NCBI GenBank assembly: GCA_028829895.1 | Contig: CM054182.1 | Location: 64,262,879 to 64,326,878 of the forward strand | DNA length: 64,000 nucleotides | Direction of reading: 5' to 3' | Source: Sinotaia quadrata | Taxonomy: Eukaryota > Mollusca > Gastropoda > Architaenioglossa > Viviparidae | In this document: in pieces, positions 3,141 through 64,000 of the stretch | Numbering within the stretch: the stretch's first letter is position 1 | Layout: each line of letters begins with the position of its first letter | Translations under genes and position numbers: made by a program | Notes under the pieces: model-generated | Databases searched by the model: none | Seen by the model: only the letters and a program-made list of their open reading frames with translations | Told to the model about the DNA's origin: nothing

Positions 3141-3387
3141 TTTTAATGAGAATTATAAAGAGTAAATACGTCTACAGGTTTTCTTAACAGCATATCGTTT
3201 GACCGTTTACTACTGATAAAATTCATGTCTATGAGCCGTACTTCTAAATTGTGTTCACGTTCATGCAACGCCTACAGTAAATCGTTAAACCGTATTACTG
3301 AACTTGTGTTCATGCATCACTGACAGCAATTTGCTAGACGTACTACTACAAGTACTTATATTCAAGAAGCATATCAATAAATTGTTT

Positions 3388-4004
3388 ACAACGTGTGAGC
3401 TCATTAGTATAAGCGGTTCTACTTGTACAACGTGTGAGCTCATTAGTATAAGGCAGCGGTTCTACTTGTACAACGTGTGAGCTCATTAGTATAAGTGGTT
3501 CTACTTGTACAACGTGTGAGCTCATTAGTATAAGCGGTTCTACTTGGTACAACGTGTGAGCTCATTAGTACAAACGGTTCTACTTGGTACAACGTGTGAG
3601 CTCATTAGTACAAGCGGTTCTACTTGGTACAACGTGGAGCACATTAGTACAAGCGGTTCTACTTGGTACAACGTGTGGGCACATTAGTACAAGCGGTTCT
3701 ACTTGGTACAACGTGTGTGCTCATTAGTACAAGCGGTCCTTCTTGGTACAACGTGTGAGCTTATTAGTACAAGCAGTTCTACTTGGTACGTGTGAGCTCA
3801 TTAGTACAACGTGTGAGCTCATTAGTATAAGTGTTCTAGTTGGTACAACGTGTGAGCTTATTAGTACAAGCGGTTCTACTTGGTACAACGTGTGAGCTCA
3901 GTAGTACAAGCGGTTCTACTTGGTACAACGTGTGAGCTTATTAGTACAAGCGGTTCTACTTGGTACAACGTGTGGGCACATTAGTACAAACGGTTCTACT
4001 TGGT
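3388..4004 (+). repeat. About 40-bp minisatellite, about 15 copies
   Basis: Unit ACAACGTGTGAGCTCATTAG followed by about 20 bp ending in GGTTCTACTTGGT. Copies vary slightly in length (39-42 bp) and sequence. This is the highest-copy minisatellite of the window. Confidence 0.95.
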
Positions 4005-5467
4005 ACTAAGTTCATGCGACTCTCAGTCATTTCTTTACGTCCATTCGTCTAGTAATAATTATTTGCCGTCATACCTATAATAAATACAAGTACTGGAATA
4101 AACGAAACAAAAAAAGAAAGGCAAGAAGAGATAGAACAAAATTGGATGACGTCAGAGTATAAGCTTTCCAAAGTGCTGAGAACCACTTTATGAAAATTCC
4201 AAAGAAAGTCGCACCACTGACCCCCTTGGCACTTAGATGAAAGTCGTTGATCTGTGCAAAGGAGCTGCAAAAGACTCTCCAAATGACTGCCATGGAGTAA
4301 ATAAGGGTCTGTGAGTGGCAGGTGCTGTTATCTCGGCTAGTGGGCACGCCCCTCAGCCATAAAGACATTTTCATTTTCGGGAGGAAGTGGAGGTGGGAGA
4401 TACATTTTTATTTCAGGCTTTAGTTTTAAGGTCGCTTTTATTTGGGGAAAACTGTATTTTTTAATTCCTTCTGGCATTTTTTTAAACAAGAGTTAGTTGT
4501 CTGTCGGTGGCGTTTCGATTTTCTTAACGTGTCTTAGGTATAGTCACATTTCATTGCAAGTTTAGGACTGGACCTGAAGCAAAAATGCATACATACTGTC
4601 ATAAGTATTACATTATTATTTCGTTTAAGGTTGTTACATTTATGACGTCAATGGTGACGTGCGTAATGTATGACGTGCTAATTATGTAGTTCGAAATCTG
4701 ACCTATCCGCCATAATAATCGTACGATTTGACGACAAATGAAAGACTGACTGGCTATTTTGCAACAGTTACATCTACATGCACCACTCAACTATTGTTCA
4801 GGGACCATTTCCAATTCATTTTATTTCGTAAAAATCACCGGCAGGAGACTCTCCCCCATTTCATGATTTGTTGTTTCGTTAGTCGTTCTTTCTTTAAGTT
4901 TAACTGATATATTTAACATATATGTTACATTTCTTTGCAGTACCATTCCGGCTAACGGCGAATGCAGCTGGAAATGGCGTTGCCTTTGACCTCGAAACAT
5001 CATATAGTAGGCTACAAATAATATGTAGTGATCCGGAAACTGTTGAGCGATTTCTTTCCTAGGTCTGTCGCATATGAGTGGACCGATAGGCTTGATATAC
5101 AGTTAAGATTCGCAACTTGAGTTGTCTCCCCATTGGGTAAGCTACTGAACTTGCTTAGGAGCGCGCGACGCGAAGAAGAATTACTTCCGGCGAGGTCAAG
5201 TGCTCTTTATATAAAGCACGAGCTGAAGTTTCGTGATTTTTCAATATATGTTCACTATGTGTTTTTTTTTTTTTTAAGTGTTGAGGTTATATTGTGTTTT
5301 ATTATATATTCATAAAAGAAATGTACCATATAGTTGCTAATTAAATAAGAAAATAGTTTTTAAAAGTATACATTTATGGCAACAAAATAGGTAAACTGTC
5401 TCCTTTCTAGGTCAGTCATTTACTCAACTGAGTGGAAACTAAAGCCTCAGAATATATTTGTAAGAGA
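4005..5467. other. No supported gene
   Basis: Unique sequence. A 99-codon minus frame at 4,075-4,374 looks hydrophobic at its C-terminal half but shows no recognisable domain or splice context, so it is not called. A T-rich run lies near 5,265. Confidence 0.4.
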
Positions 5468-22591: not shown

Positions 22592-22975
22592 TACTAAGGT
22601 AGTGTTTAATGTCTATGTCGTGTGTCTACAAGGTAGTGTTTAATATTGGTGTCGCGTGTCTACAAGGTAGTGTTTAATGTCTGTGTCGTGTGTCTACAAG
22701 GTAGTGTTTAATGTCTGTGTCGTGTGTCTACAAGGTAGTGTTTAATGTCTATGTCGTGTGTCTACAAGGTAGTGTTTAATGTCTATGTCGTGTGTCTACA
22801 AGGTAGTGTTTAATGTCTATGTCGTGTGTCTACAAGGTAGTGTTTAATGTTGGTATCGTGTGTCTACAAGGTAGTGTTTAATGTCTATGTCGTGTGTCTA
22901 CAAGGTAGTGTTTAATGTCTATGTCTATGTGTCTACAAGGTAGCGTTTAATGTTGGTGTCGTGTGTCCAGAAGGT
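22592..22975 (+). repeat. 34-bp minisatellite, about 11 copies
   Basis: TCTACAAGGTAGTGTTTAAT recurs every 34 bp. Variant words TATGTC, TGTGTC and TTGGTG mark subgroups of copies. Confidence 0.96.
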
Positions 22976-24309: not shown

Positions 24310-24672
24310 ACAACTTGGAGAATCTAAAGTGCTTTCATTTTTTGTGTAAATTACCAAACCATTACCAGATAACTTGCAGAATCTAAAGTGCTTTCATTTT
24401 CTGTGTAAATTACCAAACCATTACCAGATAACTTGCAGAATCTAAAGTGCTTTCATTTTCTGTGTAAATTACCAAACCATTACCAGATAACTTGCAGAAT
24501 CTAAAGTGCTTTCATTTTCTGTGTAAATTACCAAACCATTACCAGACAACTTAGAGAATCTAAAGTGCTTTCATTTTCTTTGTAAATTACCAAACCATTA
24601 CCAGATAACTTGCAGAATCTAAAGCGCTTTCATTTTTTGTATAGAATACCAAATCATTACCAGATAACTTGA
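24310..24672 (+). repeat. 59-bp minisatellite, 6 copies
   Basis: AACTTGCAGAATCTAAAGTG recurs every 59 bp; four central copies are almost identical and the outer ones diverge. The units are contiguous, without spacers. Confidence 0.96.
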
Positions 24673-27518: not shown

Positions 27519-27523
27519 ATTAC
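27519..27523. repeat. Target-site duplication, left copy (ATTAC)
   Basis: Five bases directly outside the 3' LTR, repeated exactly outside the other LTR at 35829-35833. Five base pairs is the normal staggered-cut size for Ty3/Gypsy integrases. The match shows that both LTRs belong to one insertion and that it has not since recombined with another copy. Confidence 0.93.
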
Positions 27524-29069
27524 TGTTACGTTTCCAGTATTTATTTAAAGACCCTGCTTAGAATAATTAAAAGACTTTAAATATAATTAATTCTTCCTCT
27601 CATATTCTACGCAGACTGGTTGCTCAATTTATTATCTGACTAATTAAAAGTGCGTCTTGTAGTTCAGACGACAAATTTACAGACTAATAAACTGCGAACT
27701 TTTAGCTAGATTTGAAAACAGTTAAATCCCTCTAAATTAATATGCACTCGTCATCAATCTTTCTGCTCATCCGCCCCCATTCAAATCTAAGAATTAATCT
27801 AATTGGTCTATTGTGCATAAAAATCAACTACTAAGAGGTATTAACAAGAAAATAAGATTTAATAAAGTTTAACAAATTAACAATAAATCGAATGCAACGC
27901 GAATAGTCTTCACTCTGTCTTTACGCGCCTATGCCTGATTTTTGTCAATCTAAATTGCCAGAAAAGTGTTCCTTTGAGATCTGTACACTTGATCTTGCAC
28001 TTAGCTCTATTCTTGTATCCTTGGTCTCAACACTCAGTCATGCCGATTCGTTCCCTCAGTCCCCCTTTAACGACACACGTGGTGCATAAGGAATGATGTC
28101 CCTTTGTTAGTGGCTAGGAACTGGAATTTTTGCAGCATGGCCCTCAGAGTGGATTTCGACACGCTTATACCAATAAGCTAATGCAGGTGAGGCATGGTGA
28201 AACATGAACCATGAGCCGACCTGTGGATGCAACGTGTTTGGATATAATTCTCAACCTAACAGGCCCTACTTAGGCATGGCTCAATTAAATGCGCTGAACA
28301 AAGAGTTTCGACCTCGCGTCGCTTACAATTAGATTTTAGAAAAATATAATCGTCTCACATGTGTTCCATTTAACAGTCATGACGTATGAAGCAATAAAAT
28401 AGATACAACGTTAAATTAATGTTCATACAAAGAGGTAATTCAAACCGACAGAGCGCTTCACAATTTACAATTAAAATTACACGCAATAATTGAATTACAT
28501 GAAGAATTCATATCGAGCGCAGCATTCTGGCTCTTAGTGAATTAAAACAATATAAATTAAAGTACAGAAATGGAAAAATGGTTACAATAAATTTATATTC
28601 CGTAACATATAGGTTTTCAGCTATTTCTCTGAACCATGCTCAAGTGTATATGGAAATCATATAATACATAGCACAAATACATACTTAAACAATACATAGG
28701 CAAATACTATTAAATAAAATGATACCTTTGAGAGAAGTCGAAGGGTACCTTGATTCTCTATGGCGCCGGCTGCCTCTCACGACCCGAGTAAGCTGATGGA
28801 ATTAGCTAAAATGTGCTCGAAGTGAGGGAGCGGAAGTGTGTGGGTACATATATAGAAAGGTATATTGCGTATCACGTGACTGTTCGCAAAGCATGTGGTT
28901 GGTTCGAGAACTGGACAATGGTCCTAAAGTTACATAACATCTTGACCTGTTCTAGAAGCACCTAGAAAAAGGAAGCTTTGAACAAAGGGCCAAGGGTTTC
29001 AAATATTCGAATTTGAAGTAAACAAGGCAAGTGGGTCACGAAGTCGGACAATTTTATCAGACTGTGACA
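27524..29069 (-). repeat. 3' LTR of the Gmr1-type element
   Basis: Second copy of the 1,546-bp LTR. It is preceded in element sense by the polypurine tract and followed by the ATTAC target duplication. AATAAA-type signals in element sense occur at 27540-27545 and 27628-27633, so transcript ends probably fall close to the outer edge of the LTR. Confidence 0.95.
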
Positions 29070-29082
29070 CCCCCTTGCTTTT
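29070..29082 (-). other. Polypurine tract
   Basis: In element sense AAAAGCAAGGGGG lies immediately before the 3' LTR start TGTCACAG. An RNase H-resistant purine run in this exact position primes plus-strand DNA synthesis in LTR retrotransposons. A single C interrupts the run. Confidence 0.85.
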
Positions 29083-29293: not shown

Positions 29294-32200
29294 TCAAGCA
29301 CGACTCATGTAATCTGCACCAACATTCAAAGACCCTTTGATGTAATGAATATTTGCGTCATACTGTGTCAGAAACAAAGACCAACGCATTAAACGGCTGT
29401 TCGTAAATTGCGCCTGTCCGAGAAAGGCCAACGGCTGGTGATCGCACTCAATGACAAAGGTTTTTCCGTACAAATAGTTTTCGAACTTTTTTATGGCCCA
29501 AACTATTGCAAGACATTCCTTTTCACTGGTGGAATATTTCTGTTCAGTAGTTGTGAGTTTACGGCTTGCATATGCAACTGGGTGTTTGGTGTCATTGTGT
29601 TCTTGTAATAACACTGCTCCTAATCCTGTGTTGCTAGCATCAGTCCTTAACAAGAATGGTTTTGTCAGATCTGGCAGTTTAACAACTAAATCTGAAGTCA
29701 GTCTAGATTTCAGTGTGTCAAAAGCGTTTTGGCATGCATCAGTCCACACTACTTTTGTAGGCATATTCTTACGTGTCAAGTCAGTCAGAGGACATGCAAT
29801 GGCACTAAAATCTGGTACGAATTTTCTGTAGTAGTTAGCAAGACCAAGAAAACTTCTAACTTGTGTTTTTGTTAGCGGTTGTGAAGTGTCCTTAAGTTGT
29901 GCTATCTTAGCTTCACTTGGCGACATAGTTCCATGACTCAACTTGTGTCCCAAGAAGTCTAAGGAGAATTGTGCTGTTTCACACTTCGTAGGGCGGGCAG
30001 TGAGGTTGGCTTGCTTTAATCTGGCTAGCACATCTCGTAAGAGTGTTAAGTGCTCCTCCCATGTCTGGGTGCCTAGAATTAAATCATCCATGAAGTTCTC
30101 AACTCCACGTCCGTACAGTGGTTCTAACAATGACCGCATCATTTTAGAAAAAATGCTTGGAGCGTTTGAAACTCCGAAAGGCATAACTTTCCATGTGTAG
30201 TTTCCTACTGGTGTAGTGAAAGCTAGTATGTGTCGATCAGTGTCCTTGACCTTGATTTGCCAAAAACCGCGTGACAAATCTATTTTGGTATAGTAATGAG
30301 CGTTAGCTAGCTTAGTGAAGATGAGATCCGGATCAGGAAGAGGTTCGGCACAAAACTCTGTCACTTGATTGAGTTTGCGGTAGTCTACGCAAAAACGGAA
30401 CGAGTTATCACGTTTTTTAATCAACACGATGGGTGATCCGTAGGCACTGTCAGTCTGCTCTATGACCCCTAGATCTAACATAGTCTTAATCTCACGTCTA
30501 ACGTCATCTATCTTAGCGTGTGGCAACGGATACGGCTTCAAACGTATCGGTTTGTTGTCAGTCAGCTTCAGTGAAAATTCTATTAAGTCTGTCAACCCTG
30601 GTTTGTCTGTCAGAGTAGATGAGAACTCATTAAGCAATTCATTCACTTCTTTTTTCTGTCTTTCTGTCAAGGCTTCATTTACCCTAACGTCTTTGACAGT
30701 TTCGTCCGTCTGTAGAGGACAGTTTGGTAAAGTACCAGTGACGCAATCAGTCTCCCCCTCGTCTTCTGTAACTATCGTCGCTACGACAAAATCAGCTTGA
30801 GTGGTTTGATCCTCACGGCTTATGTACTTTTTGAGTAGGTTAACATGAAAGATTTTCTCTCTCTTTCCTGTCTGCACCTTATAGTTCAGTCCCCCTAGCT
30901 TGGCGGTAACTACAAAGGGCCCCTTCCATTTCATCTGAAGTTTGTTATGTGCTTCAGGAAGCAACAGTAACACTTTGTCATTAACTTCAAATTCTCTAGG
31001 TTTGGTGTGCTTATTGTAATATTCTGCCTGTCTAGACTGAGCTATCGTCAAGTTTTCCCGTGCTATCTTGCCTATAGTTTCAAGACGGTTTCTTAAGTCA
31101 GTGACGTATGTATAAGTTGTCTTAACTTCGTCATCTGTCTTTTCATCAGTCCAAAGTGCCTTCAAAATCATCATCGGTCCGCGTACAGTACGTCCGTAAA
31201 GTAGCTCAAATGGTGAAAACCCGGTGGAAGATTGTGGCACCTCCCTATATGCAAATAGTAGGGCAGGGATGTATCTGTCCCAGTCTTTCGGTTTATCTGT
31301 GGCGAGCTTTTTAAGTGCTGTTTTTAATGTCCCATTGTATTTTTCAATCAGACCATTTGCCTGGGGGTGGTATGGTGTGCAAGTAAGATGTTTGATGGAA
31401 AGTAAACGATTTACTTCCTTCATTACGTTGCCTATGAATTGACTCCCCTGATCCGTCAAAATTTCAGTAGGAATTCCAACACGACTCCAAAGACCGAAAA
31501 GGGCTTCGGCGACAGTTTCAGTATCAATATTTTTCAATGGTACTGCGTCGGCGAATCTTGTTGCGTAATCAATAGTGGTCAGCACGTATCGATTACCTCT
31601 CGTTGATGTGGGTATTATAGGCCCAATCAAATCCAATGCTACGCGCTTGTAGGGTTCACTGATCAGTTCAGGCTCTCCTAACGGTGCGGGTCTGATTGAA
31701 TTTTTAGACTGTGTTCTCTGGCATGTGTCGCAACTTAACACGAATCTACGGATATCGGCAGTGATGTCCGGCCAATAAAACTCACTTGTAATACGACTAG
31801 TTGTTTTTTGTACACCCATGTGTGCACCAAAAAGACTCTCATGACCTAATCGTAATACGTCATTTCGTTTGGTTTGTGGAACGACTAATTGTTTCCGAAA
31901 TTCGTCTCCCACTTTCGAATAGCGGTACAATAAACCCTTTTTCAGAATAATGCACGCTTTCTTATTCGAATCGTCAGTGTTGACGTCACTAACAAGTACA
32001 GCTTGTCTGCGTAACTTGTCTAGTGTTTCGTCCTCAGCTTGTAATATTTTAATCTCGCTAACTGTTGCTTTATCTACGGCTGGTGCGGCAGACATCGGTG
32101 CAGTTACAGATTTGTCTTTACTACTCGCTGCTCTGGTTACAGCGTTAACCAGTGGTGGTTCGATTGAAGTTTGTTTTTTGCACGGCAAAACATACTTGCA

Positions 32201-33664
32201 ACCAAGGATCACGTCATGCGGTGAGTTTTCCATAACTGCCGCTTTGACTGTTCCTTCTACAAAGTCTGAAACAATCGAGACTTCAGCTACTGGTAAAATG
32301 TCTTGTTCGCCGTTTGCAAAGGTGACAGAGATTGTCTCCCCTGTGTAGTCGGTACGGTTAACTAATGATGCATTTACAATAGCGTCTAGCTCACACCCTG
32401 TATCAAGCAAAGCGATTGTATCGTGACCGTTTGCCTGTACTGGTGTTCGATTCGACTTTTCTGTTTTAGGTGTATGACTTTCTACTGCGTAAACTTTAGC
32501 TGTTTTCTTTTCAGGACATGTTCGTGAAAAATGGCCACTATCACCACAAGTGTAACATGCAAGATTCTTTTTATCTTTCTGTTTGTCGGACTTGTTTTTA
32601 GTGTCGGGTTTAGATGTTTTATCATCACGCTCACTATGTGCCTTCCCGTCATTTTTCTTATCCTTTCGAGTCTGCGGTTCGTTCGGTCGAGACTTGTTGT
32701 TCGCGTGTGCGTTCGAGAATTGAGAATGTGCGTCATCAAAGCGATCGGCGGCGTTGCCTATCTCCTCTAGCGTAGATTTTTCCCTTATTGCTAAGTGAAT
32801 CAGTAGATCTGATTTGTACGACCCGAGAATGTGGTCTTTTATCATTTCATCCCTAAGACCTGCGTACGTCTGTGGAGTTTCGGCTAGATCTATCCATCTT
32901 TGGAACAAGTCAGCTACGCGTCGTATGTACTGTGCGTGCGTCTCCGAACTGGCTTTAGTGGCCTGTTTAAACTTACGTCGGTATGTATCTGCTGTGAGTT
33001 TGTAACGTTTCAATAATGCGGCCTTGACTGTGTCGTAATTATCTGACTCAGAATCGCTAAGCTTATTGAACTCGTTTTTCGCACTGCCCTGCAATAACCC
33101 CGATAAATTTATCGCCCAATGTTCCGCTGGAATGTTTGTTGCTCTGGCTAACTTTTCAAACGTTTTTAAATACGCGTCTATTTGATCTTTGTTCTCATCA
33201 AATGGGACCATATTTATCTTTGGAATGATATTTTCAATTCTACTGTGATTATTTCCTTCGCTAGAACGCGAATCACCACTGCTTCTGCGGTCACGGTTTG
33301 GATTGGTAACTTCTAGTTTCTTTACCTCCCATTCTAACCGTTTTATTTCCGCGTCTGCCGCGATGCGTTTGGCTTCTGTATCCGCTGCGATGCGTTTTGC
33401 TTCTGTGTCCGCTGCGATGCGTTTAGCCTCGGTTTCAGCTAGTCTTTCAGCCTCTAACTTCTTAGCTTCGCGGGCAGCTAACCGTTCTTCCCTTTCTATC
33501 TCTTGCCTTTCTTTGTCCGCTTTTTCTACTCTCTCCTTTTCTCTTTCTTTCTCCTTTTCCGCTTTCTCTAGCTCAGTTTTGACGTAGTTCGTCAGTTCGT
33601 CACCCTGATATCCTATCATGATACCGGTTTCTTTCAGGTCTTCGATAACCTGTTTGCGATCCAT
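29294..33664 (-). CDS. gag-pol: Gag-Pol polyprotein, Gmr1-type (Gag-PR-IN-RT-RNase H)
   Basis: A single 1,456-codon frame with no stop or frameshift. Residues 30-120 are a highly charged coiled coil with a 9-residue unit (TEAKRIAAD) repeated three times around 78-105. Residues 145-320 are a Gag capsid-like region, followed by a basic linker and a CCHC zinc knuckle (C370, C373, H378, C383). Protease has the DTG triad at 421-423. Integrase comes next: HHCC zinc finger (H608, H615, C645, C648), catalytic D678, D738, E774 with D35E spacing, and a GPF motif (915-917) of the GPY/F domain. Reverse transcriptase follows (about 1020-1245) with D1129 and FMDD at 1191-1194, then RNase H (about 1335-1455) with D1342, E1383 and D1408. 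All catalytic residues looked for are present, so the enzyme set is probably active. Integrase ahead of RT is the Gmr1 order. Gag and Pol are fused in one frame, so their ratio cannot depend on frameshifting here. There is no env. Confidence 0.97.
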   Translation of the reverse strand: MDRKQVIEDLKETGIMIGYQGDELTNYVKTELEKAEKEKEREKERVEKADKERQEIEREERLAAREAKKLEAERLAETEAKRIAADTEAKRIAADTEAKRIAADAEIKRLEWEVKKLEVTNPNRDRRSSGDSRSSEGNNHSRIENIIPKINMVPFDENKDQIDAYLKTFEKLARATNIPAEHWAINLSGLLQGSAKNEFNKLSDSESDNYDTVKAALLKRYKLTADTYRRKFKQATKASSETHAQYIRRVADLFQRWIDLAETPQTYAGLRDEMIKDHILGSYKSDLLIHLAIREKSTLEEIGNAADRFDDAHSQFSNAHANNKSRPNEPQTRKDKKNDGKAHSERDDKTSKPDTKNKSDKQKDKKNLACYTCGDSGHFSRTCPEKKTAKVYAVESHTPKTEKSNRTPVQANGHDTIALLDTGCELDAIVNASLVNRTDYTGETISVTFANGEQDILPVAEVSIVSDFVEGTVKAAVMENSPHDVILGCKYVLPCKKQTSIEPPLVNAVTRAASSKDKSVTAPMSAAPAVDKATVSEIKILQAEDETLDKLRRQAVLVSDVNTDDSNKKACIILKKGLLYRYSKVGDEFRKQLVVPQTKRNDVLRLGHESLFGAHMGVQKTTSRITSEFYWPDITADIRRFVLSCDTCQRTQSKNSIRPAPLGEPELISEPYKRVALDLIGPIIPTSTRGNRYVLTTIDYATRFADAVPLKNIDTETVAEALFGLWSRVGIPTEILTDQGSQFIGNVMKEVNRLLSIKHLTCTPYHPQANGLIEKYNGTLKTALKKLATDKPKDWDRYIPALLFAYREVPQSSTGFSPFELLYGRTVRGPMMILKALWTDEKTDDEVKTTYTYVTDLRNRLETIGKIARENLTIAQSRQAEYYNKHTKPREFEVNDKVLLLLPEAHNKLQMKWKGPFVVTAKLGGLNYKVQTGKREKIFHVNLLKKYISREDQTTQADFVVATIVTEDEGETDCVTGTLPNCPLQTDETVKDVRVNEALTERQKKEVNELLNEFSSTLTDKPGLTDLIEFSLKLTDNKPIRLKPYPLPHAKIDDVRREIKTMLDLGVIEQTDSAYGSPIVLIKKRDNSFRFCVDYRKLNQVTEFCAEPLPDPDLIFTKLANAHYYTKIDLSRGFWQIKVKDTDRHILAFTTPVGNYTWKVMPFGVSNAPSIFSKMMRSLLEPLYGRGVENFMDDLILGTQTWEEHLTLLRDVLARLKQANLTARPTKCETAQFSLDFLGHKLSHGTMSPSEAKIAQLKDTSQPLTKTQVRSFLGLANYYRKFVPDFSAIACPLTDLTRKNMPTKVVWTDACQNAFDTLKSRLTSDLVVKLPDLTKPFLLRTDASNTGLGAVLLQEHNDTKHPVAYASRKLTTTEQKYSTSEKECLAIVWAIKKFENYLYGKTFVIECDHQPLAFLGQAQFTNSRLMRWSLFLTQYDANIHYIKGSLNVGADYMSRA

Positions 33665-34262
33665 TTTACTGTCTTAGCGCGCTGGCTACAATAACAATGT
33701 ATCTCGTGAATTGTGTGTTTTAACCGTCGGCGATAACTCCGCTTATCCCGAAAATAACTTTTAGGCTACAACCTTACAAAAATTATTTAATTTACTCAGA
33801 ACACCTTCCGAAATAAATTGCGCGTTAACTCTTACACGTTTCACCTGCTTGTCACAGTGTCCGCTGTTCCAAGACTTTCGTAATGTCACGGCTCCTACCA
33901 TACAACATTACACATTATATCTAGCACCCTAAATATAATAGTCCGAAGTCTGTTACTACCGATAACTCTCCTAGCTGGCGGTATAACCTTCGACTCCTCA
34001 CAATGAAGTACTCAGTAACACAATACTAAATAAATCATTCAATAGCTAACATGACATATTTAACTACGCTTAAATATATCAACATTAACTAACATGCACG
34101 CTACTCTGCAAAAGAATACATGCACATGTCACAACAAAAGCAAAGAAAATCAGTGATACAAAAATCAAAAGAACAATTGGCAATTCTGTTCGTTCGTTCG
34201 TTTCTAGGTTATGATGCGCCCTATGTATAAAAATGTTACAATTTACAATTTAATACATATCA
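33665..34262 (-). other. Element leader (5' untranslated region)
   Basis: About 600 bp between the primer-binding site and the gag start codon. No long reading frame was seen. It would carry the packaging and dimerisation signals of the genomic RNA if the element follows the usual plan; none can be recognised by eye. Confidence 0.6.
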
Positions 34263-34282
34263 ATCCCGCGACGACCCACACT
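34263..34282 (-). other. Candidate primer-binding site
   Basis: Directly after the 5' LTR in element sense the sequence reads AGTG followed by TGGGTCGTCGCGGGAT. TGG is the complement of a tRNA CCA end, and GGGATT resembles the complement of a tRNA T-arm. The spacing between them is one base short of a normal acceptor stem, and I could not match the site to a tRNA I know. The position supports a PBS; the primer tRNA is unassigned. Confidence 0.5.
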
Positions 34283-35828
34283 TGTTACGTTTCCAGTATT
34301 TATTTAAAGACCCTGCTTAGAATAATTAAAAGACTTTAAATATAATTAATTCTTCCTCTCATATTCTACGCAGACTGGTTGCTCAATTTATTATCTGACT
34401 AATTAAAAGTGCGTCTTGTAGTTCAGACGACAAATTTACAGACTAATAAACTGCGAACTTTTAGCTAGATTTGAAAACAGTTAAATCCCTCTAAATTAAT
34501 ATGCACTCGTCATCAATCTTTCTGCTCATCCGCCCCCATTCAAATCTAAGAATTAATCTAATTGGTCTATTGTGCATAAAAATCAACTACTAAGAGGTAT
34601 TAACAAGAAAATAAGATTTAATAAAGTTTAACAAATTAACAATAAATCGAATGCAACGCGAATAGTCTTCACTCTGTCTTTACGCGCCTATGCCTGATTT
34701 TTGTCAATCTAAATTGCCAGAAAAGTGTTCCTTTGAGATCTGTACACTTGATCTTGCACTTAGCTCTATTCTTGTATCCTTGGTCTCAACACTCAGTCAT
34801 GCCGATTCGTTCCCTCAGTCCCCCTTTAACGACACACGTGGTGCATAAGGAATGATGTCCCTTTGTTAGTGGCTAGGAACTGGAATTTTTGCAGCATGGC
34901 CCTCAGAGTGGATTTCGACACGCTTATACCAATAAGCTAATGCAGGTGAGGCATGGTGAAACATGAACCATGAGCCGACCTGTGGATGCAACGTGTTTGG
35001 ATATAATTCTCAACCTAACAGGCCCTACTTAGGCATGGCTCAATTAAATGCGCTGAACAAAGAGTTTCGACCTCGCGTCGCTTACAATTAGATTTTAGAA
35101 AAATATAATCGTCTCACATGTGTTCCATTTAACAGTCATGACGTATGAAGCAATAAAATAGATACAACGTTAAATTAATGTTCATACAAAGAGGTAATTC
35201 AAACCGACAGAGCGCTTCACAATTTACAATTAAAATTACACGCAATAATTGAATTACATGAAGAATTCATATCGAGCGCAGCATTCTGGCTCTTAGTGAA
35301 TTAAAACAATATAAATTAAAGTACAGAAATGGAAAAATGGTTACAATAAATTTATATTCCGTAACATATAGGTTTTCAGCTATTTCTCTGAACCATGCTC
35401 AAGTGTATATGGAAATCATATAATACATAGCACAAATACATACTTAAACAATACATAGGCAAATACTATTAAATAAAATGATACCTTTGAGAGAAGTCGA
35501 AGGGTACCTTGATTCTCTATGGCGCCGGCTGCCTCTCACGACCCGAGTAAGCTGATGGAATTAGCTAAAATGTGCTCGAAGTGAGGGAGCGGAAGTGTGT
35601 GGGTACATATATAGAAAGGTATATTGCGTATCACGTGACTGTTCGCAAAGCATGTGGTTGGTTCGAGAACTGGACAATGGTCCTAAAGTTACATAACATC
35701 TTGACCTGTTCTAGAAGCACCTAGAAAAAGGAAGCTTTGAACAAAGGGCCAAGGGTTTCAAATATTCGAATTTGAAGTAAACAAGGCAAGTGGGTCACGA
35801 AGTCGGACAATTTTATCAGACTGTGACA
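34283..35828 (-). repeat. 5' LTR of the Gmr1-type element
   Basis: Long terminal repeat at the upstream end of the element in its own (minus) sense. In that sense it starts TGTCACAG and ends CGTAACA, giving the usual TG...CA ends. I saw no difference from the other LTR when comparing them line by line. At 1,546 bp it is long. A TATA-like motif lies about 215 nt into the LTR, which would leave a short U3 and a very long transcribed R/U5 part; that division is inference. Confidence 0.95.
35606..35637 (-). promoter_or_regulatory. Candidate LTR promoter: E-box plus TATA-like motif
   Basis: In element sense a CACGTG palindrome (35632-35637) precedes a CTATATATG TATA-like motif (35606-35614) by about 18 nt. 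The order and position within the 5' LTR fit an RNA polymerase II promoter for the genomic transcript. CACGTG is the core site of many bHLH factors. The motifs are seen; their use is inference. Confidence 0.4.
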
Positions 35829-35833
35829 ATTAC
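35829..35833. repeat. Target-site duplication, right copy (ATTAC)
   Basis: Exact partner of the left copy. About 50 bp further right a long (GATA)n array begins, so the element inserted beside a microsatellite. Confidence 0.93.
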
Positions 35834-35882: not shown

Positions 35883-35918
35883 AAGATAGATAGATAGATA
35901 GACAGACAGACAATCAGA

Positions 35919-36006
<88 letters not shown>

Positions 36007-36063
36007 CAGACAGAAAGAAAGATAGATAGATAGACAGACAGACAGATAGACAGACAGACAATC

Positions 36064-36098
<35 letters not shown>

Positions 36099-36107
36099 CA
36101 GACAGAA

Positions 36108-36179
<72 letters not shown>

Positions 36180-51300: not shown

Positions 51301-51523
51301 TCTCACTCACAGTTATCTCTTTCATACTGTTTTGATATTGCGGTTCTATTTCCTCTATGAGAAAGCCGTCAATCTGTTTCTGGCAGCTTTTGATGAATGT
51401 TTACATTCTTTTTGTCAAATCTGTTTGCAAAGGATTCTCGAAAAAAAAAAAATCCCTCTCTGGGGTGGTACTGTCGCTAGCAATGGAAGCCACTATCATG
51501 GAATCGGTGACATCGTTGTCTTA

Positions 51524-51866
51524 GTGCATAGTCTCCTACACTTGGGAAGTGATGGATCTATCAGCTCTATTAGTGCATAGTCTCCTACACTTGGGAAGTG
51601 ATGGATCTATCAGCTCTATTAGTGCATAGTCTCCTACACTTGGGAAGTGATGGATCTATCAGCTCTATTAGTGCATAGTCTCCTACACTTGGGAAGTGAT
51701 GGATCTATCAGCTCTATTAGTGCATAGTCTCCTACACTTGGGAAGTGATGGATCTATCAGCTCTATTAGTGCATAGTCTCCTACACTTGGGAAGTGATGG
51801 ATCTATCAGCTCTATTAGTGCATAGTCTCCTACACTTGGGAAGTGATGGATATATCAGCTCTATTA
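51524..51866 (+). repeat. 49-bp minisatellite, 7 nearly identical copies
   Basis: GTGCATAGTCTCCTACACTT recurs every 49 bp from 51,524. Only the last copy shows a difference (ATATATC for ATCTATC), so amplification is recent. The array is contiguous. Confidence 0.97.
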
Positions 51867-53029: not shown

Positions 53030-56000
53030 GGAATACCTTACATTATCTTTTGATGATTTTTAAAAAGCTGAATAACTTCGTTAAATCTTACCAACTCGTA
53101 TTGTAGTTAAATAAAACTCGCAGAAGCTTTGGCTAAATAATTTAGCAGAAGAAATGAACAAATGTTTCAAGCATGTATGACGCGTGCCAAATAAACTTTA
53201 GCTAAAGAATTTTATAGAAAAGATTTGGGCTTACTAATATTAACTTTATTAGATTTTAAATTAAATTAGTCAACGGAGAGAAATATATGTCATATTTGAC
53301 TACAGCACTTTTGAACCACAGGACAAAGACAGTGAATTCTGCCACAGGTTCGGTACAAACAGAAACCCAATGTAATCAAGTTCACGCTCGGGTGACTCCG
53401 CCAAGTTGAGTCAACAGCGGCCAGCAATGAGAGTATCGTCGCCCTTAATTCGGGTCAAAGTTCAATGACAACAGAGGACTGAAGTAGTAGGAACTGAATG
53501 TATTTATTTTGTAACAAATGTGTGGATAAATTTGGATTATCCAAAATGGGTGGGTGGGGAGAAGTATGTACAATTGAACAATATTCTGTGTGTGTCATTG
53601 GTGGCAAAACTATCTTAACTATAAATGTGCCTCTGGTTTTTATCAGTAATGAGCTTATACTATTAAATAGATTATCACAGAAACCATAATGAAGTACATG
53701 TATTTCCATAAATTTTGTCCACATGTTAATTGTTATGCAAATATGGAGTAGAAAAATTGTGAGAATTCTCAGAAATTGACATCGAACTTGTCTACTTTTA
53801 AATTGAAGTTTTTAATCTTAATTTGTTTTGTACCTAATCAATCAATAAACTTACTAGCATTCTATAGATTTTTTTTTTTTTTTATAGATACAGAATACAT
53901 AAACTGTTGTATATAGTATTTCAATATGGCAACCTCTTCTATCAACATAATATGACTTTAACTTTAGACAATTGAATGCCTTCTACAAACTACTATAAAA
54001 GCAATAATTTTGCATTATTATTAAAAGGAGTTTATTAGTGCAATTTCCAACAGAACATTAATAGCTACATCTTTATAGACAATTTTTTATTTTTATTTTA
54101 GATTAAAATGAACTATATTTTTTGTACAGAGTTGCAACAATTGACATTTGTCTACATTTCACTGTCTTCAGATTCACAATAAACCATCTTCAAAGTAGTC
54201 CTCAACAGATCAGACTATCAGTGTCTTCTTGAATTTCAAAATGTGTCAGCTTCATAATTAGTGGTGCTTTTTAAAGTAATTCACCAGACTTTATGTTAAT
54301 AATGTATATGTAGAGATCCAATGCCAGCATAAATTTACAGAAATAAGATTATGTTTCTTTTCATGCAGGCAAATGTAAATCTTGACAGTACCAGCATGTT
54401 TATAAGAACAAAAATATAAGACATCAAAACAAAAGAAACAAACTTTTAATGACAGATCATTCGGGGTTTCCAATACTATGTATAAGATAGCTACATCCTT
54501 TAGGAAGGATGTTATAGCAATCCAATTATTGTCTTTTATTTTTTGTTGTTGTGTAGAAACCTTTGACAGTTGTTCATTCTCCTTTGGACATCTTTTTCCA
54601 GGTGGAAAGTAGTTATAAGTTGTTTTTTTCCTTTCCAATACTGCAAACTCATTGCTGCATGAATCATGAAAGAAAATGAATCTTAACTGATTTTAACACA
54701 TGATCAAGACATTGGCCATTATTATTATTAGTCGACATGGAAGACATTAATTCAAGAGCATAGGGAACAATCATATAATGTGCCCAAAATATAAAGGACA
54801 ATAAAAACATGTGCCATAATTTATCTGTAAAAGCTTCTTATGGCCATCCTGTACAGTTACTATTGTGTATATATTATATAGGCTATCAGAGAACAGAATG
54901 GAATGGAGGAAGCTGGTTGTCAGGTCATCAGTGGTGCCCCCAAAACAATAAAACTAAGGAATACATAGATAGTACAGTACTAACAAGACTAAACTGATTA
55001 CCATTGCAAATGTAATAGATGTATGATAACCAATTTTTTCATCTCCATTAATTCCAATGAAATTTATACTCACTCTAAGATAATGTAATTTAAAAGTCCT
55101 CTCTTATGTCAACCCAAAACATATACTTAGAAATTCAGCTTTGTTTATTTTTGTTATGATTTATATGATTAACAGCTGAGCTTTAGTACTATTCCACATT
55201 AACATCTCATTTACTCTCAAATAATAAAAATTATTTAATAAATTATCAAATACATCTGGCCCAAGTGTCTGAAGTTTAATTAATAAATTCTATAGAAGAA
55301 AGCTAAATAGGATATTTAAAGAACTAGCTTAATCAGTTTCAGGGAATTCCTAGAGAAAATAGTGTCAAGGTGACATAATTCACCTTTTCAATACGAACCT
55401 GTTGTACACTTTAAGTTTAAATAATAGTAACTACTCTTAGTTTTACATCATGGCCTACATATATTAGTTTCCATTCATTGCATAAGCTAAGGAGGATTGG
55501 GAAATATAAAGTTAAACGAGTCTGCAGGGTAAATTAATTTACGAGGTTAAGAATAAATGGTTCTATAAAAGACAGTAAATACTATTCTACAAAAAGGTAA
55601 CACACGGAGTATTATACAAAATAAAACTCGGAATAGTAATAATATTGTCTAACGCTTACGAGTGGGCCAAACAATCGCTTCAGGGTAGTTAGTTAGAATT
55701 TACTTTGATTATACATGATTTTTTATATTCAACACATTTGCATTAATATATCTATTACATTTTATACTTTCAATACCCACACGGTGTATCATAATAAAGA
55801 ATATGATTTCACGGTATTAAATTATTTTAATAAAAGATGTACATACGTATGTACATTTACTTAGCATTTCTTCATACGTCCTTGACCTTTCCAATGCTCA
55901 TGTACATTCTTATTCCTTTAATAAAAAATGTTTTTGCTAAGTTAACATTAAATTAAAATTGATTTAACTTATAAATTAATGCATACAGATAAAAATAATG

Positions 56001-56060
56001 ACTAACCACACTAATATTTTTCTGCCGGCTACGATTAAAAAAAAGGCTGGATGGCCCGGA
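53025..56060. other. AT-rich unique sequence, no supported gene
   Basis: Few tandem repeats. A 115-codon minus frame at 54,291-54,638 is not recognised; with AATAAA words further left on that strand the region could be a long 3' untranslated region, which is only a suggestion. Confidence 0.4.
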
Positions 56061-56275
56061 TGTAGTATGGCGTCAAATATGCCAAATGCAGATGCGTAGA
56101 GTGTCCAAAAACCGGTTAAGATCTCCGCACAAAACGTTCCTGTGCATTGCAAATTGCTAATTTACTAGAGCTTTAATGGTGATGCATGCAAGGAAACAGC
56201 CAAGAGTTCATGATGGGTAAAAATCTAAAGATCAAACTAACACTTATTAAATGAACAGACCTCGTCCGCCATCTT
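56061..56275. promoter_or_regulatory. Candidate YY1 sites near a gene start
   Basis: AAGATGGCGG on the minus strand (56266-56275) is an exact match to the core YY1 consensus, and a near match (ATGGCGTC on plus) overlaps the proposed ATG at 56067. Such sites often sit just downstream of transcription starts in animal housekeeping genes. The local GC and CpG content is higher than in the flanks. This supports a promoter here without proving its direction. Confidence 0.35.
56067..56095 (+). CDS. Candidate first coding exon, unknown gene
   Basis: Possible start of a plus-strand gene. The ATG has a good Kozak context (A at -3, G at +4). It opens nine complete codons (MASNMPNAD) plus two bases before GTAGAG, a usable but not ideal donor; without splicing the frame stops one codon later. 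The phase (two bases over) matches the one-base start of the next exon, and the joined frame stays open through three exons. The ATG also overlaps a YY1-like word (ATGGCG). The product is not recognised. The phase fit is seen; the gene is inference. Confidence 0.4.
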
Positions 56276-56374
56276 TGTTGTTAAAATTTTAGAAAGATTA
56301 TGAAGTGTCCAACTTGCATGTTATCTATTGCCAAATGCTAATAATTGTTTGTTTCTCTTTTAAATTTGTTTCAG

Positions 56375-56408
56375 GTACGCTGAAAGAAAAGACGTCCATC
56401 TGCAGCAG
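56375..56408 (+). CDS. Candidate 34-bp internal exon, unknown gene
   Basis: A strong pyrimidine-rich acceptor (TTTGTTTCAG) precedes 34 bp that end CAGCAG before GTAACA. Joined to the preceding candidate exon it completes an alanine codon and adds eleven codons (YAERKDVHLQQ), ending in phase 0, which fits the next exon. It is short enough to count as a near-microexon. It could instead be an untranslated exon if translation starts later. The intron before it would be 279 bp. Confidence 0.45.
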
Positions 56409-59400
56409 GTAACACCCAACGATTGTCACTGATAAAAGCTGTCTAATCTGAACTTGGGCGACCATCGGGGAAAACACTAAATTAAGATTTTTACAAGAAT
56501 ATCTTCTTTTTGTTTATAAACAAAACAGAGAAAGATTTAAGAAAAGCAAGATTTTTTTTTCTCTTCACAATTATAATTTAAGCAAATGAAATTTAATCCG
56601 TATTCCTATGAAGAAAGTCCGGAAACTTAGTCGGCATTGCTACAGTCCCACAGAAAGCAAACTAAGTGTAGTAGCATAAAGTTTGCTGAAAAACATTGCT
56701 CATTCTTTAATCACTAAAATATCTAAATGATTCATACTCTGGAAGACTAAATATTATCATTAGTCCCATTAAAAAAAATAATAAATTACTGTTTATTCAG
56801 ATGTCCCAACAATAATGTAGTCCTAATTATTTTATTTGCACACATCAGATATTAGAAACATAATACAGAAGAATATTTTGAGATCATATAGGTTTTAGAA
56901 ATTACATAGACTATACATCTTTGAGACAACCACCACCATAAGCACATTGCAGCTCTCATCATCAGTTTTGTATTACTATCTGAAGCATTTTTGGAGCGAA
57001 ATATTTTTTCTCAAGATTCTTTGCTGCTCTTGATTTATTTTACTATACCTTCACCTTGGTGAATCTAAACTGGAAATGGTCTGATTTTATGATCAAAACA
57101 TTGTAAACTTTGATAGAATAGCTTACCAAATCAGTAAAATGGTCTTGGTAGTCATTTTAAAGATGCATTATTATATATGAGTATAGTATGAATTAGACAT
57201 AAAATTTCCTGTTTAATATAGTTACTGTAAACCTATTCTTTTCCACATTTACATTTCATGAAATGCACTAGGACACAAAAAAATAAATGTTGAAATAAGG
57301 AGGAAATGTTACCTAAGATGTAATTTTTCTTGTAAAATATTATTCACCTTAACATTTTACAACTTACATTTTTTTTCTTTAAGAAATATTATTATCATCC
57401 ATATTTGCCTTTTATTTATTTCTAATCGAGTGTTTAAACATTAGTGTTATAAGAATGCTGATTAAATAGAAAGGCCTTTTCATGCGACATTATTATGGGG
57501 TTATCAAATAATTAACCTTACATGTTTTTGAGATCATATTCTGCGTTTTTTTTTCTAGTAATGAGAGCAATTAATGAATGCTCTCAATTTAGACCTTGCT
57601 AGTAAATTTTAAGGATTGTTATTATGAACAGTCATGACTCCTGCCATTCCAGCAGCAAAAGACATTTAAATGCTCCACAAACTGATTCTGGTTGCAGTTT
57701 ATGCTCAGCATTACAATGTAAAAATGTTTGGGATTCTGACAACTACTTTGAACAAGCCAGCTCATTCGCATTTTATTATTACAAATAATTGAACTGTAAA
57801 TAAAGGTTGACTTATGACTATAAGAAATAGAAAGCTATTTTTAAATCTGTGCATATTCAGAATTATATCTTGAACTTAAAAGTTAAGTCAAATACTAGGT
57901 CATGCCCTTTTACATTTTAAGTTAGTAAATTTAAATGCTATAAGGTACTAATAAATTACTACAAAAGATTATTTCTTAAAGTCCACAGACACATTTGATT
58001 TACAGAGTTCAAAAGAAAAAAATATTGAAATATTTTGTGCATATATATTTTCATTTCCATCAGGACTTTTTGAAATCAATATAAACATGTATTAATTATT
58101 CTGCTGTAATAAATATTTAGTTTAACTAAATTGAAGATAATGTAGTCTGTATATAAAATTTTGCTGACACTGACCACCTAATAAATATTGATTCTTATTA
58201 TGCACTGTTTATATGAGAAAATTTTATGAGGATGACTTAGGTATGTTATAATATGTATGATTATAAATAAAATGCTTGTAAAATTAAGTATTTACTGATT
58301 ATTTAAACATTCTCTCACTTGCTAATAATATTTAGAGTTCTGTAATTAAATTAATTCTGTAAGCAGAATCTTCATGTCATTAGTCAAAATTAGCTTTCTA
58401 GTTTCATCATGAGAAATCTCATATCTTTTACAAAGCATTATGGAGTTGATCCCAAATTTACCAGTATTTTAGGGACAAAGAGATAAATCTACTTAATTTT
58501 TTGAAGTAGTTGATCTTTATTTTTTCTAAAATGCCATGGTATTAAAATATATTTATTTCAATGCTGTTCAAACAATGAGGCCATTTAATCCCTGTCTTCA
58601 GATCGAATGAATTGTATAAACGATTGAAAAGCAGTTTCACATTAAAATTGTAATACGGTAAAAGGTAATAGTGTCTCATTTGATAAACAGTTTTATGTTA
58701 AAATCTCAATACAATAAAAAGTTTTATAAAAGAATGTCAGTAGTCTGAGTCCTGCATGTTTAGTTATAGGTATTTAGCACGCTGCTGTTAAGATATTTTC
58801 ATTTAACTGAAGCACGAGTCATTATTTCCTCAGCTGTCTTTCAGGCATTTGTCTTTGTTGATTAAATCTGTTTTTTTATAAGTGTATTGGATTTTTTGGT
58901 TATATAATTACAGATGGCATGATTTTGTGGCAAAGAATCAATTTAGTTTTTTTTTAAAAAGTAAAATATTTTTGTTGTTGATATGTATACTTTGTATAGT
59001 TCGAGCTTATTGGTAGTTCAAGGAGACCATTCACCCTATCCTATTGAGACTCCAGTATATTTGCTGAAGGGGATAAAAAAAATTTAATAATTTTAGGCTT
59101 GCCTAAAGAAAGCTCATAGACGGAAAAACAGAAAGATCATTATAAAAAGTAGGACACTTCTAGTCATTTGTCATTGTAAATTCATCTGCTAGAGTTTAGA
59201 TTGCTGTAACCAAATCTTTGATGTAGACTAAGCAGTTAAAAATTAAGTTTCTTTTGTTATCATTTAGCATTGCGACAGTTTTGATATAGATAGTTGTTCA
59301 AACTGTAAATGAGTTAAAAAAAATTTAATAAAATTTTCTTATACTGCATATATAAACACACACAGCATAAATACTCATTTGATACATCAAAGCAGGTGTC

Positions 59401-59871
59401 CTAATTTTAAGAATGAAGAAATGCTTATAAAATTTAAAATCTAATAACATTATATTTCCTTATGTGATTCAGAACTCTATTTAACATTTGTTTTATTAGT
59501 GACAGAATTAGCTTGTACAACTAAATTCTTGCAAGAGATAAAATTTTGTTTCTAAACAGTTTGTCTGTCCGACTTTTATTTTTCTTTGACCATTTAATGA
59601 TTTATCCTGTCCTTGTTTTACTGTTTCTAAATCTACCCTTACATTCTGTAACTGAACATACCACTCATTTCCACTTTGAAGAATGAGATGAACTAACATT
59701 TTGAAACTGAAAAAGATTGGACATACATCCTGACCTTTACACCATAAAGGATTATGAAGTCTTCCATTGAGGCAAATAATGAAATGTAATAAACTAATAT
59801 GCTCAGGTTCTTTAATTAGGATTTCAGTGAACTTAAGAGAGAATGATTATACAATTTGTAAAAATCTTTAG
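56409..59871 (+). other. Candidate intron of the plus-strand gene model
   Basis: Very AT-rich, with no frame of note and no microsatellite. If the exon model is right this is a 3.46-kb intron with a GTAACA donor and a TCTTTAG acceptor. Confidence 0.4.
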
Positions 59872-60052
59872 TGGTTGGACCGTCACCAAAGCATGCAGCA
59901 CCAACAAAAGGGGCGCAGTGAATTGTATGGTGATGGATCTCCTGCTGAGCAAGTTCTTACCCAAAGCACCCGAGGTGACAGTCCTAGTGGCCAGTCGAGT
60001 CCCAGACATCCGAACAAGTCTGCTTATATTGAAAGGAATAAAGAAAAGCGAG
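59872..60052 (+). CDS. Candidate 181-bp coding exon, unknown gene
   Basis: Bounded by a TCTTTAG acceptor and a near-perfect AG/GTGAGT donor. The frame carried from the upstream exons is open for 60 codons plus one base. The residues are hydrophilic, with a Gln/His-rich start (HQSMQHQQ), a Ser/Pro-rich middle (SPSGQSSPRHPNKS) and a basic end (ERNKEKR), a composition typical of disordered parts of regulatory proteins. It is more GC-rich than the surrounding AT-rich intron-like sequence, which supports real coding. The next exon would lie more than 60 bp downstream and was not found in the window. I do not recognise the family. Confidence 0.6.
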
Positions 60053-60204
60053 GTGAGTTGTCATTTTGAAATGTTTTGCTTTATCTGTATTTTTCTTTTA
60101 TAAATTATAAACAGACGTGTCATTGCTACTAAGTGCAGGTACATAGAACACAATTACTAAAAATATGTATGCATTTGAGGACCTGCTTATCCTTATGGAT
60201 TCAC

Positions 60205-60279
60205 CATTAGTAGCACAATTTCAGTCAGTTCTCCATAATTATTAATTATGGAGAACTGACTGAAATTGTGCTACTAATG
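60205..60279. repeat. 75-bp palindrome (37-bp arms, 1-nt centre)
   Basis: Arms at 60,205-60,241 and 60,243-60,279 are perfect reverse complements around a single T at 60,242. The first base pair outside the arms mismatches. As RNA it would fold into a 37-bp stem. It lies about 150 bp past the candidate exon at 59,872-60,052. There are no flanking target duplications or recognisable transposon ends. Confidence 0.95.
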
Positions 60280-61946
60280 ATAGATAGAAAATTACAGAAA
60301 GATTGAAATTTTAAATCATTTATGTTACTTTAAAAAATGTTGATTTCTTGAGAATGCATAAGTCAGACCAGTAGACTGAACCCATGATATAAAAAATTTG
60401 GATTACCCTCTCCTGAATTTTCTGTTGTGCAGTGAGTATTAAAATAAAGTGCACTATTTTCAACCTTCATTCTCAAATCTTGATGATTTATTCATGGATA
60501 AATTAAAATCTGTTTTAAAAAGAAGTGCTGAAGATAACTGATAGTGTAGACATATTGCCTGTTTAGAAAAAGTTCAACCTTCAAACATTTCATCTGCAAT
60601 ATTCATAATTTTGAAGAAATCCTTTGACTGAGACTAGGTAGTCCCACTCATTTTTTTCTAATTGATATTTTACAAATGTTTTATGCTCAAAATGTGCGTT
60701 CTGATGAAATAAGGTTGTACAGAAAAAATTATGATGATAGCTATAATACTTTTTGAGATATTGTCAATTTAGTGTCGTAATTTGTGATCAACATTTTTTA
60801 GACATAATGAATGTGCAGTTTGTCAAGTTCAGTACAAGTAAAATATAAACCACACTGATCAACAGTCCAACATTTTAAATTAACATAATCACAGACAACA
60901 AGAAAAAACAAACATAATGCAGAATCGAAATTTAAATTTCTTATAAATTATGACGGAAAACGTGCTTTTGTTTCATAAAATTGCTTACAAAATGCAACAA
61001 ACTGGAATATTCATGGCATCATAGCATAATCAACTGATGAACAAAGTATATCCAGAATGCATATTATTAAATCATTTGCTATGTAGTTAATGCCTATTTT
61101 TTTCCAAAAGCATAGCAATAACAGTGAAGAAATTATTTGATGCTGAAAATGGCCATTTCAACTAATTTTAACCAAAAAAGAGCAGTAACCAAGTGTTATA
61201 GGGAAAACGTAAAAAAGCAAATTGTCATATCTCTAAAACTATACAACATACAGAGCTGGTTCACATATCAAAATGATCAGTAAGTTGTGCTCTATCTAAA
61301 TATATAAAGTTTAGTTATGTTTAATCATTTATTTAATTTACATTTTTAGTTTTTTTTATAAAATTCCTATTTACGAAGAAAATGAAAATGGATAAATTGT
61401 CATATCTCTGAAACTATACATAACACAGTTATGGTTCACCTATTAAAATGACCAGCAAGATGTTATACATGAAACTAAACAAAAGATTTGTTCAGCATTT
61501 TATTTGTTTTAATATTTTATAATACAAAATTTAATATTTAAAATCTTAAAAACCGTATTAAAACTGCTTGATTGGTATAAAAGCACTCTATATCTCTATA
61601 TGTATCAAAGATACATAAAGATGTTGAACCCATGCCATTGCTAATTATATCACTACACACACACACACTAAAAAATCCAAATCATATCGTTTTATTCTGA
61701 AGGTTTGACAAGGTCTTAAATCACTGAAACTTGTGAAAGTGTGCATGAAAAATTTATTCTTAAATTAAAACAGTGCTCTGCACACATGTACATTATTTAA
61801 AGAAATATTAACATATTTATATAATTATAATGTAGGTTATGAATAAAAGATCATTTCATTTTTGTTTTATTTATTTCAAATAATGAATATGCACAATAAC
61901 ACACAGTGACACACATACATCCATTATCATAACAAACAGCAACATC
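60280..61946. other. AT-rich sequence with a diverged duplication
   Basis: At about 61,215-61,300 and 61,393-61,480 the phrase AATTGTCATATCTCTAAAACTATAC and the following TGGTTCACxTATxAAAATGA recur in diverged form about 180 bp apart. No coding signal was found outside the decayed block further right. Confidence 0.5.
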
Positions 61947-62637: not shown

Positions 62638-62867
62638 AACCCTGAAGATAAGTTAGTGTACTGCTCATCAGCTAAAAAAAATATTCCACAAATGTTCAAT
62701 CCTTAAAATTTTCTTTATGCAAACAAGTATGCTGTAAGTAGGATAACTATTACTGTATTAGCTGCATACTTTTAATAACTTGCTTTTGATGTAAAGAAAA
62801 AAGTATACATTGCTTACCAGCTAACAGAGTGAAAGGACCAAACAATATTTAAATATTACTCTTTAAA

Positions 62868-63804: not shown

Positions 63805-63985
63805 GTTTTTAGAAAGAGGTTGAAATGCTGAATAAAATGATATGTTTTCCTAGTTTTTCTGAAAAATATTTGATCCCAAAAATTGGTCTCAAATTTTTAA
63901 CTTAAATTTTTTTTGGTGTTATTCTTAACGTACAATATGGAAAAAAATATGAGTGTATAGAGTTATCTCTCTTCTTTTTAATGGA

Positions 63986-63990: not shown

Positions 63991-64000
63991 CAGAATTTCG

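What the first reader, a model, noticed from the sequence alone, without database searches (positions are those of the whole stretch)
29294..33664. Ty3/Gypsy-like polyprotein with integrase ahead of reverse transcriptase
The single 1,456-residue frame has the order Gag, PR (DTG 421), IN (HHCC 608-648; D678, D738, E774; GPF 915), RT (FMDD 1191), RNase H. Canonical Ty3/Gypsy elements place IN last; Gmr1-type elements carry Gypsy-like enzymes in a Ty1/Copia-like order. This copy is intact, with Gag and Pol fused in one frame and no env.
Basis: partly seen in the sequence, partly recalled or inferred. Interest (0 to 1): 0.75.

Follow-up and report, generated by a model that had tools for sequence, protein, structure and literature searches.

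The report
Integrase-first Gypsy retrotransposon, intact copy
This is a complete, very recently inserted copy of an ordinary kind of animal jumping gene whose enzymes are strung together in an unusual but already described order, so it is a good example rather than a surprise.

Summary
The order is not an assembly artefact: another contig encodes residues 152-1456 with 3 differences in 1,305. Among the 221 listed nearest homologues 159 are IN-RT-RNase H; the 32 that begin with RT are distant tandem-copy proteins, 33-41% identical. RT and IN trees both put IN-first elements on one side of one branch and give the copy the same neighbours, which speaks against a chimera. Its Gag family matches the vertebrate SCAN domain (the window copy itself only weakly), which reviews trace to Gmr1-like Gag. 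It is best read as a Gmr1-like Ty3/Gypsy element. No sequence named Gmr1 was obtained, so the tree test against Gmr1 was not run. Verdict: new member of a known kind.

The parts
27519..27523 (.). target-site duplication ATTAC, copy beside the 3' LTR
   Evidence: same five bases at 35829-35833
27524..29069 (-). 3' LTR, 1,546 bp, begins TGTCACAG and ends GTAACA on the minus strand
   Evidence: identical over all 1,546 bp to 34283-35828
29070..29082 (-). polypurine tract AAAAGCAAGGGGG (one C inside) directly before the 3' LTR
   Evidence: read; assigned by position and composition
29294..33664 (-). fused Gag-Pol frame, 1,456 aa plus stop
29360..29746 (-). RNase H domain, residues 1307-1435
   Evidence: Pfam RT_RNaseH_2 4.8e-40 and RT_RNaseH 1.7e-39
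29939..30421 (-). reverse transcriptase, residues 1082-1242, FMDD at 1191
   Evidence: Pfam RVT_1 8.4e-31; best PDB match Ty3 RT 4ol8, 7.3e-76
30827..31882 (-). integrase, residues 595-946: H2C2 zinc domain, DDE core, C-terminal module with GPF
   Evidence: Pfam Integrase_H2C2 9.5e-19, rve 4.5e-11, Integrase_p58_C 5.6e-7; best PDB match Ty3 7q5b, 2.2e-35
32195..32443 (-). aspartic protease, residues 408-490, DTG at 421
   Evidence: Pfam Asp_protease_2 1.5e-4 and gag-asp_proteas 3.5e-4, both below their cut-offs; DTG position
32510..32560 (-). CCHC zinc knuckle, residues 369-385
   Evidence: Pfam zf-CCHC 3.8e-5
32711..33220 (-). Gag capsid, residues 149-318; two-lobed CA-like model, C-lobe SCAN-related
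   Evidence: family profile A1 matches PEG3, ZNF24 and ZNF174 chains first in the PDB; Pfam SCAN in 9 of 12 members at E up to 0.001, not in the window copy (0.042); model pLDDT 87.8, pTM 0.61, capsids at the top of the fold lists
33665..34282 (-). untranslated leader, 618 nt
   Evidence: between the 5' LTR and the ATG
34262..34278 (-). candidate primer binding site TGGGTCGTCGCGGGATT, 4 nt after the 5' LTR
   Evidence: read; by position only, no tRNA identified
34283..35828 (-). 5' LTR, 1,546 bp
35829..35833 (.). target-site duplication ATTAC, copy beside the 5' LTR

Best explanation
It is a structurally complete, recently inserted LTR retrotransposon of the Ty3/Gypsy superfamily, of the Gmr1-like, integrase-first kind. 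Shown: LTRs, target duplication, polypurine tract, one intact fused Gag-Pol frame, the catalytic motifs, and congruent RT and IN ancestry. Inferred from what is established for LTR retrotransposons: RNA polymerase II transcribes from the 5' LTR; one Gag-Pol polyprotein is made and assembles through the two-lobed capsid; the protease cuts it; RT-RNase H copies the RNA, primed by a host tRNA at the leader and at the polypurine tract; and the integrase inserts the DNA, leaving a 5-bp duplication. Integrase lies between protease and RT in the precursor, which changes the order of the cleavage sites but, as far as the sequence shows, not the cycle. How enough free Gag is made without a frameshift or stop between gag and pol is not shown; unequal cleavage or turnover of Pol is my guess.
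For: Frame and domain order. LTRs identical over 1,546 bp and ATTAC on both sides. Nearly identical protein from another contig, 3 of 1,305 residues different. 159 of 221 listed homologues are IN-RT-RH. IN-first is one side of a branch in the RT-RH tree (100/98) and in the IN tree (100/99), and in both the copy sits with P0002, P0009, P0014, P0015 and P0111; the split stays after leaving out five long RT-first rows (100/99 and 98/94). Ty3 is the best PDB match of both RT and IN; the 14 Pfam matches hold no Copia-type RT (which Pfam families are Copia-type is recalled). The Gag family matches SCAN, and two reviews link SCAN to Gmr1-like Gag (passages).
Against: No sequence named Gmr1 was obtained, so Gmr1 membership rests on order, Gag and layout, not on a tree with Gmr1 in it. 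Order and clade may not always go together: one annelid paper places its LGF3 family in the Gmr1 clade, while its table gives Gag-PR-RT-RH-INT as the structure of all its 178 Gypsy elements (passages). The window copy alone does not reach SCAN at E 0.001 (0.042), and its protease matches are below their cut-offs. The tree program warned of long RT-first branches, and one AU constraint on IN was not rejected (p 0.315). The primer binding site matches no tRNA that I could identify. LTRs of 1,546 bp are longer than the 337-518 bp of four fish Gmr families. Transcription and movement are untested.
Confidence: 0.88

Rival explanations
1. A chimera: integrase and reverse transcriptase come from different retroelement families (for example a Copia-like IN block moved in front of a Gypsy RT).
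For: The order is that of Copia. With IN, one AU test did not reject holding the copy and P0002 together with all RT-first rows (p 0.315, log-likelihood 4.62 lower).
Against: That constraint only needs the pair to leave the other IN-first rows, at the foot of their group. Holding the pair with the 14-row pseudoscorpion RT-first clade, or with Ty3 and P0041, is rejected for IN (p 0.0084 and 0.022), and the move to the RT-first side is rejected for RT-RH (p 0.023); these groups were chosen after the trees were seen. IN carries H2C2 and p58_C domains with Ty3 as best PDB match. Both trees give the same neighbours.
Confidence: 0.03
2. An integrase-first Gypsy lineage that is separate from Gmr1 and reached the same order independently.
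For: The 2018 mollusc survey lists 21 Gypsy clades and no Gmr1 clade (section 6 read), and a 2021 annelid paper says the Gmr1 clade was not found in its analysis (passage). Yet many relatives listed here are mollusc proteins.
Against: SCAN-related Gag family, fused Gag-Pol frame and order together match what is written of Gmr1-like elements (passages). Echinoderm elements fall within the IN-first branch of both trees (P0048, P0056, P0072, P0081, P0109, P0122, P0134, P0179).
Confidence: 0.12
3. An assembly or annotation artefact that joined pieces of two elements.
For: None found.
Against: Identical LTRs, target duplication and one open frame; the same order in another contig with 3 differences in 1,305 residues and in 159 of 221 listed homologues.
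Confidence: 0.01

Closest known systems
Gmr1 (Gadus morhua) and Gmr1-like Ty3/Gypsy elements
   Same: PR-IN-RT-RH order (passages), SCAN-related Gag (passages), fused Gag-Pol of similar size without env (four fish Gmr families, 1506-1634 aa, env 0)
   Different: LTRs of 1,546 bp against 337-518 bp in those fish families; no sequence comparison with a named Gmr1 was possible
Integrase-first polyproteins without an element name: P0009, P0014, P0015 (organism not given), P0027 (Littorina), P0056 (Strongylocentrotus), P0111 (Biomphalaria), P0179 (Apostichopus), P0201 (Ornithodoros)
   Same: Order; RT-RH about 47-60% and IN about 51-61% identical; the window's capsid finds a match in 6 of these 8
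   Different: Separate families; the nearest other protein apart from P0001 is P0002 (84% IN, 88% RT-RH), organism not given
Ty3 of yeast and other RT-first Gypsy elements
   Same: Enzyme types; Ty3 is the best PDB match of both RT and IN
   Different: Integrase last; RT-RH about 38-40% and IN about 30-33% identical in P0012, P0019 and P0041
Ty1/Copia elements
   Same: Order of domains (passages)
   Different: No Copia-type RT among 14 Pfam matches

Membership tests
LTR retrotransposon | two LTRs, target duplication, polypurine tract, gag-pol | tested here: met
Ty3/Gypsy superfamily | RT, RNase H and IN of Gypsy type | tested here: met
   Pfam families; Ty3 best PDB match of both RT and IN
Gmr1-like | integrase upstream of reverse transcriptase in a Gypsy-type Pol | tested here: met
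Gmr1-like | Gag capsid C-lobe homologous to the SCAN domain | tested here: met
   Met at the level of the family, weak for the copy alone. Profile of 12 Gags: PEG3 2.2e-3, ZNF24 2.9e-3, ZNF174 0.022, next (ribosomal S4) 0.23 (that these three chains are SCAN domains is recalled). Pfam SCAN at E up to 0.001 in 9 of 12, best 5.7e-12, window copy not among them; at E up to 10 in 12 of 12, window 0.042. A profile of the C-lobe of these 12 matches 130 of 138 IN-first proteins with more than 250 aa ahead of the first domain and 0 of 23 RT-first or tandem ones (the profile is made of IN-first members, so this leans towards them)
Gmr1-like | RT and IN both group with named Gmr1 sequences | not testable with these tools
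   no protein bearing the name Gmr1 among the 221 listed homologues
Gmr1-like | RT and IN ancestry congruent (no chimera) | tested here: met
   one weak constraint on IN not rejected
Mag, CsRn1, Osvaldo | grouping with named members in RT and IN trees | not testable with these tools
   no named members obtained; the RT-first rows used are 32 units without element names plus Ty3
Ty1/Copia | Copia-type RT and integrase | tested here: not met
   no Copia-type RT among 14 Pfam matches (family names recalled); no Copia sequence was put in a tree

The most novel reading that the evidence does not exclude
Integrase-first Gypsy elements with SCAN-type Gag form one old, large animal lineage (molluscs, echinoderms, ticks and probably hemichordates, besides the fish, frogs, tunicates, decapods and annelids in print) that arose once. 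Mollusc surveys based on RT/RNase H alone have filed its mollusc members under new clade names without noting the domain order.
Probability: 0.45. Interest if true: 0.35.

Novelty: new member of a known kind. Interest (0 to 1): 0.2.

Why it matters
It is a clean, complete reference copy of a lineage whose domain order differs from textbook Gypsy elements, with LTRs that point to very recent activity (95% upper bound on LTR divergence 0.0019 per site). It ties a SCAN-related Gag family to integrase-first Pol outside vertebrates, and it suggests that invertebrate surveys should record integrase position. It opens no new kind of system.

Tried and rejected

Lists and rows: searches list only the best 120 of 6,525 and 2,030 hits, so the counts of order describe the nearest relatives, not all. 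Of 148 usable IN-first units I used 36 plus the window, chosen by name and rank; four more that I chose (P0082, P0185, P0193, P0213) failed my length limits. The RT-first set is 32 units, 28 of the 32 source-type proteins being from one pseudoscorpion, plus Ty3. Five long RT-first rows were dropped. The trees are rooted on the RT-first side by choice, so 'arose once' depends on that root.

Confidence was lowered from 0.90 to 0.88 for this and for the annelid table.

Paper searches for print status: open-licence papers only. Goodwin and Poulter 2002 was seen only as a reference line. The source papers on Gmr1 and on SCAN were not read. That SCAN came from a paper by Emerson and Thomas was recalled, not seen.
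Full report
What is there. The frame 29294-33664 on the minus strand is open for 1,456 codons. Pfam places zf-CCHC (369-385), Integrase_H2C2 (595-653), rve (671-767), Integrase_p58_C (915-946), RVT_1 (1082-1242) and RNase H (1307-1435 in two overlapping families) above their cut-offs in that order. Protease matches at 408-490 are below theirs but carry DTG at 421.

The whole element. Two LTRs of 1,546 bp, 27524-29069 and 34283-35828, are identical over their full length, and ATTAC flanks the element on both sides. A polypurine tract precedes the 3' LTR (read), and a 618-nt leader separates the 5' LTR from the ATG. With 0 of 1,546 sites different, the 95% upper bound on LTR divergence is 0.0019 per site, so the insertion is recent; no date is given because the host and its rate are unknown. 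No frame of env size lies between the stop codon and the 3' LTR. No other copy was found in the window.

Is the order real. A protein from another contig (P0001, 1,305 aa) differs from residues 152-1456 at 3 positions. I searched the RT-RH part and the IN part separately; each search lists its best 120 (of 6,525 and 2,030 hits), together 221 distinct proteins. By domain profile 159 of 221 are IN-RT-RH (127 of them with a detected protease in front). A further 29 are incomplete, with IN ahead of a partial RT or RNase H, or with no RT; one is IN-RT-RH-RT. The other 32 begin with RT (one with an RNase H fragment) and carry RT more than once; 30 of these 32 also carry IN, behind RT-RH. With longer domain limits the counts are 156 IN then RT, 30 IN only, 3 RT only, 31 RT-first or multiple, 1 none. 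The 32 are distant, 33-41% identical to the RT-RH query, and 28 of them are proteins of one pseudoscorpion; tandem copies raise their scores.

Are RT and IN of one ancestry. In trees of 70 rows (37 IN-first with the window, 33 RT-first with Ty3) the IN-first rows are one side of one branch: 100/98 for RT-RH and 100/99 for IN. In both trees the copy pairs with P0002 and sits with P0009, P0014, P0015 and P0111 (Biomphalaria). After removal of five long RT-first rows the split stays at 100/99 (RT-RH) and 98/94 (IN). The program warned of long branches on the RT-first side in each of these trees. AU tests reject placing the copy and P0002 with the RT-first rows for RT-RH (p 0.023), and for IN with the 14-row pseudoscorpion clade (p 0.0084) or with Ty3 and P0041, an alga protein with a chromodomain in its Pfam list (p 0.022). 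One IN test did not reject: holding the pair with all RT-first rows (p 0.315); that constraint can be met by moving the pair to the foot of the IN-first group. The groups were chosen after the trees were seen.

What is known. Five papers whose passages I saw give integrase ahead of RT as the mark of Gmr1 among Gypsy elements. Gmr1 or Gmr1-like elements are reported from fish, frogs, tunicates, decapods and an annelid (passages). Against a strict tie of order and clade, the annelid paper's table gives Gag-PR-RT-RH-INT for its 178 Gypsy elements although its LGF3 family is placed with Gmr1 (passages). The 2018 mollusc survey describes the Gmr1 order in its background (passage) but lists no Gmr1 clade among 21 mollusc Gypsy clades (section 6 read); the word integrase occurs four times in its main text. 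In the passages and listings seen I met no statement of integrase position for its MolGy clades. Named IN-RT-RH relatives here include Littorina, Haliotis, Pecten, Dreissena, Biomphalaria and Babylonia (molluscs), Diadema, Lytechinus, Strongylocentrotus and Apostichopus (echinoderms) and Ornithodoros (tick). Two hemichordate proteins are incomplete: P0192 (Glandiceps) has PR-IN and part of RT, P0146 (Saccoglossus) PR-IN only.

Verdict. It is an intact, young, Gmr1-like Ty3/Gypsy retrotransposon: a new member of a known kind, of modest interest.

Noticed in passing
35884-36179: AGAT-type tetranucleotide array (74 copies) starts about 55 bp outside the 5' LTR; the element sits beside a microsatellite.
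   Followed up: no
1103-1470, 3387-4006, 22596-22975, 24312-24671, 51521-51866: Minisatellite arrays with units of 63, 40, 34, 59 and 49 bp, 91-99% matches.
   Followed up: no
54001-64000: G+C falls to 0.28-0.31 in 2-kb steps, from 0.34-0.43 in the rest of the window.
   Followed up: no
relatives P0126 and P0128 (Littorina saxatilis): Predicted proteins whose precomputed Pfam list holds SCAN, integrase and a Macro domain (PF01661) but no RT: possibly gene models fused with element pieces.
   Followed up: no
residues 30-120 of the frame (about 33305-33577): Highly charged, repetitive, probably coiled-coil Gag N-terminus with a repeated EAKRIAADT unit (read).
   Followed up: no
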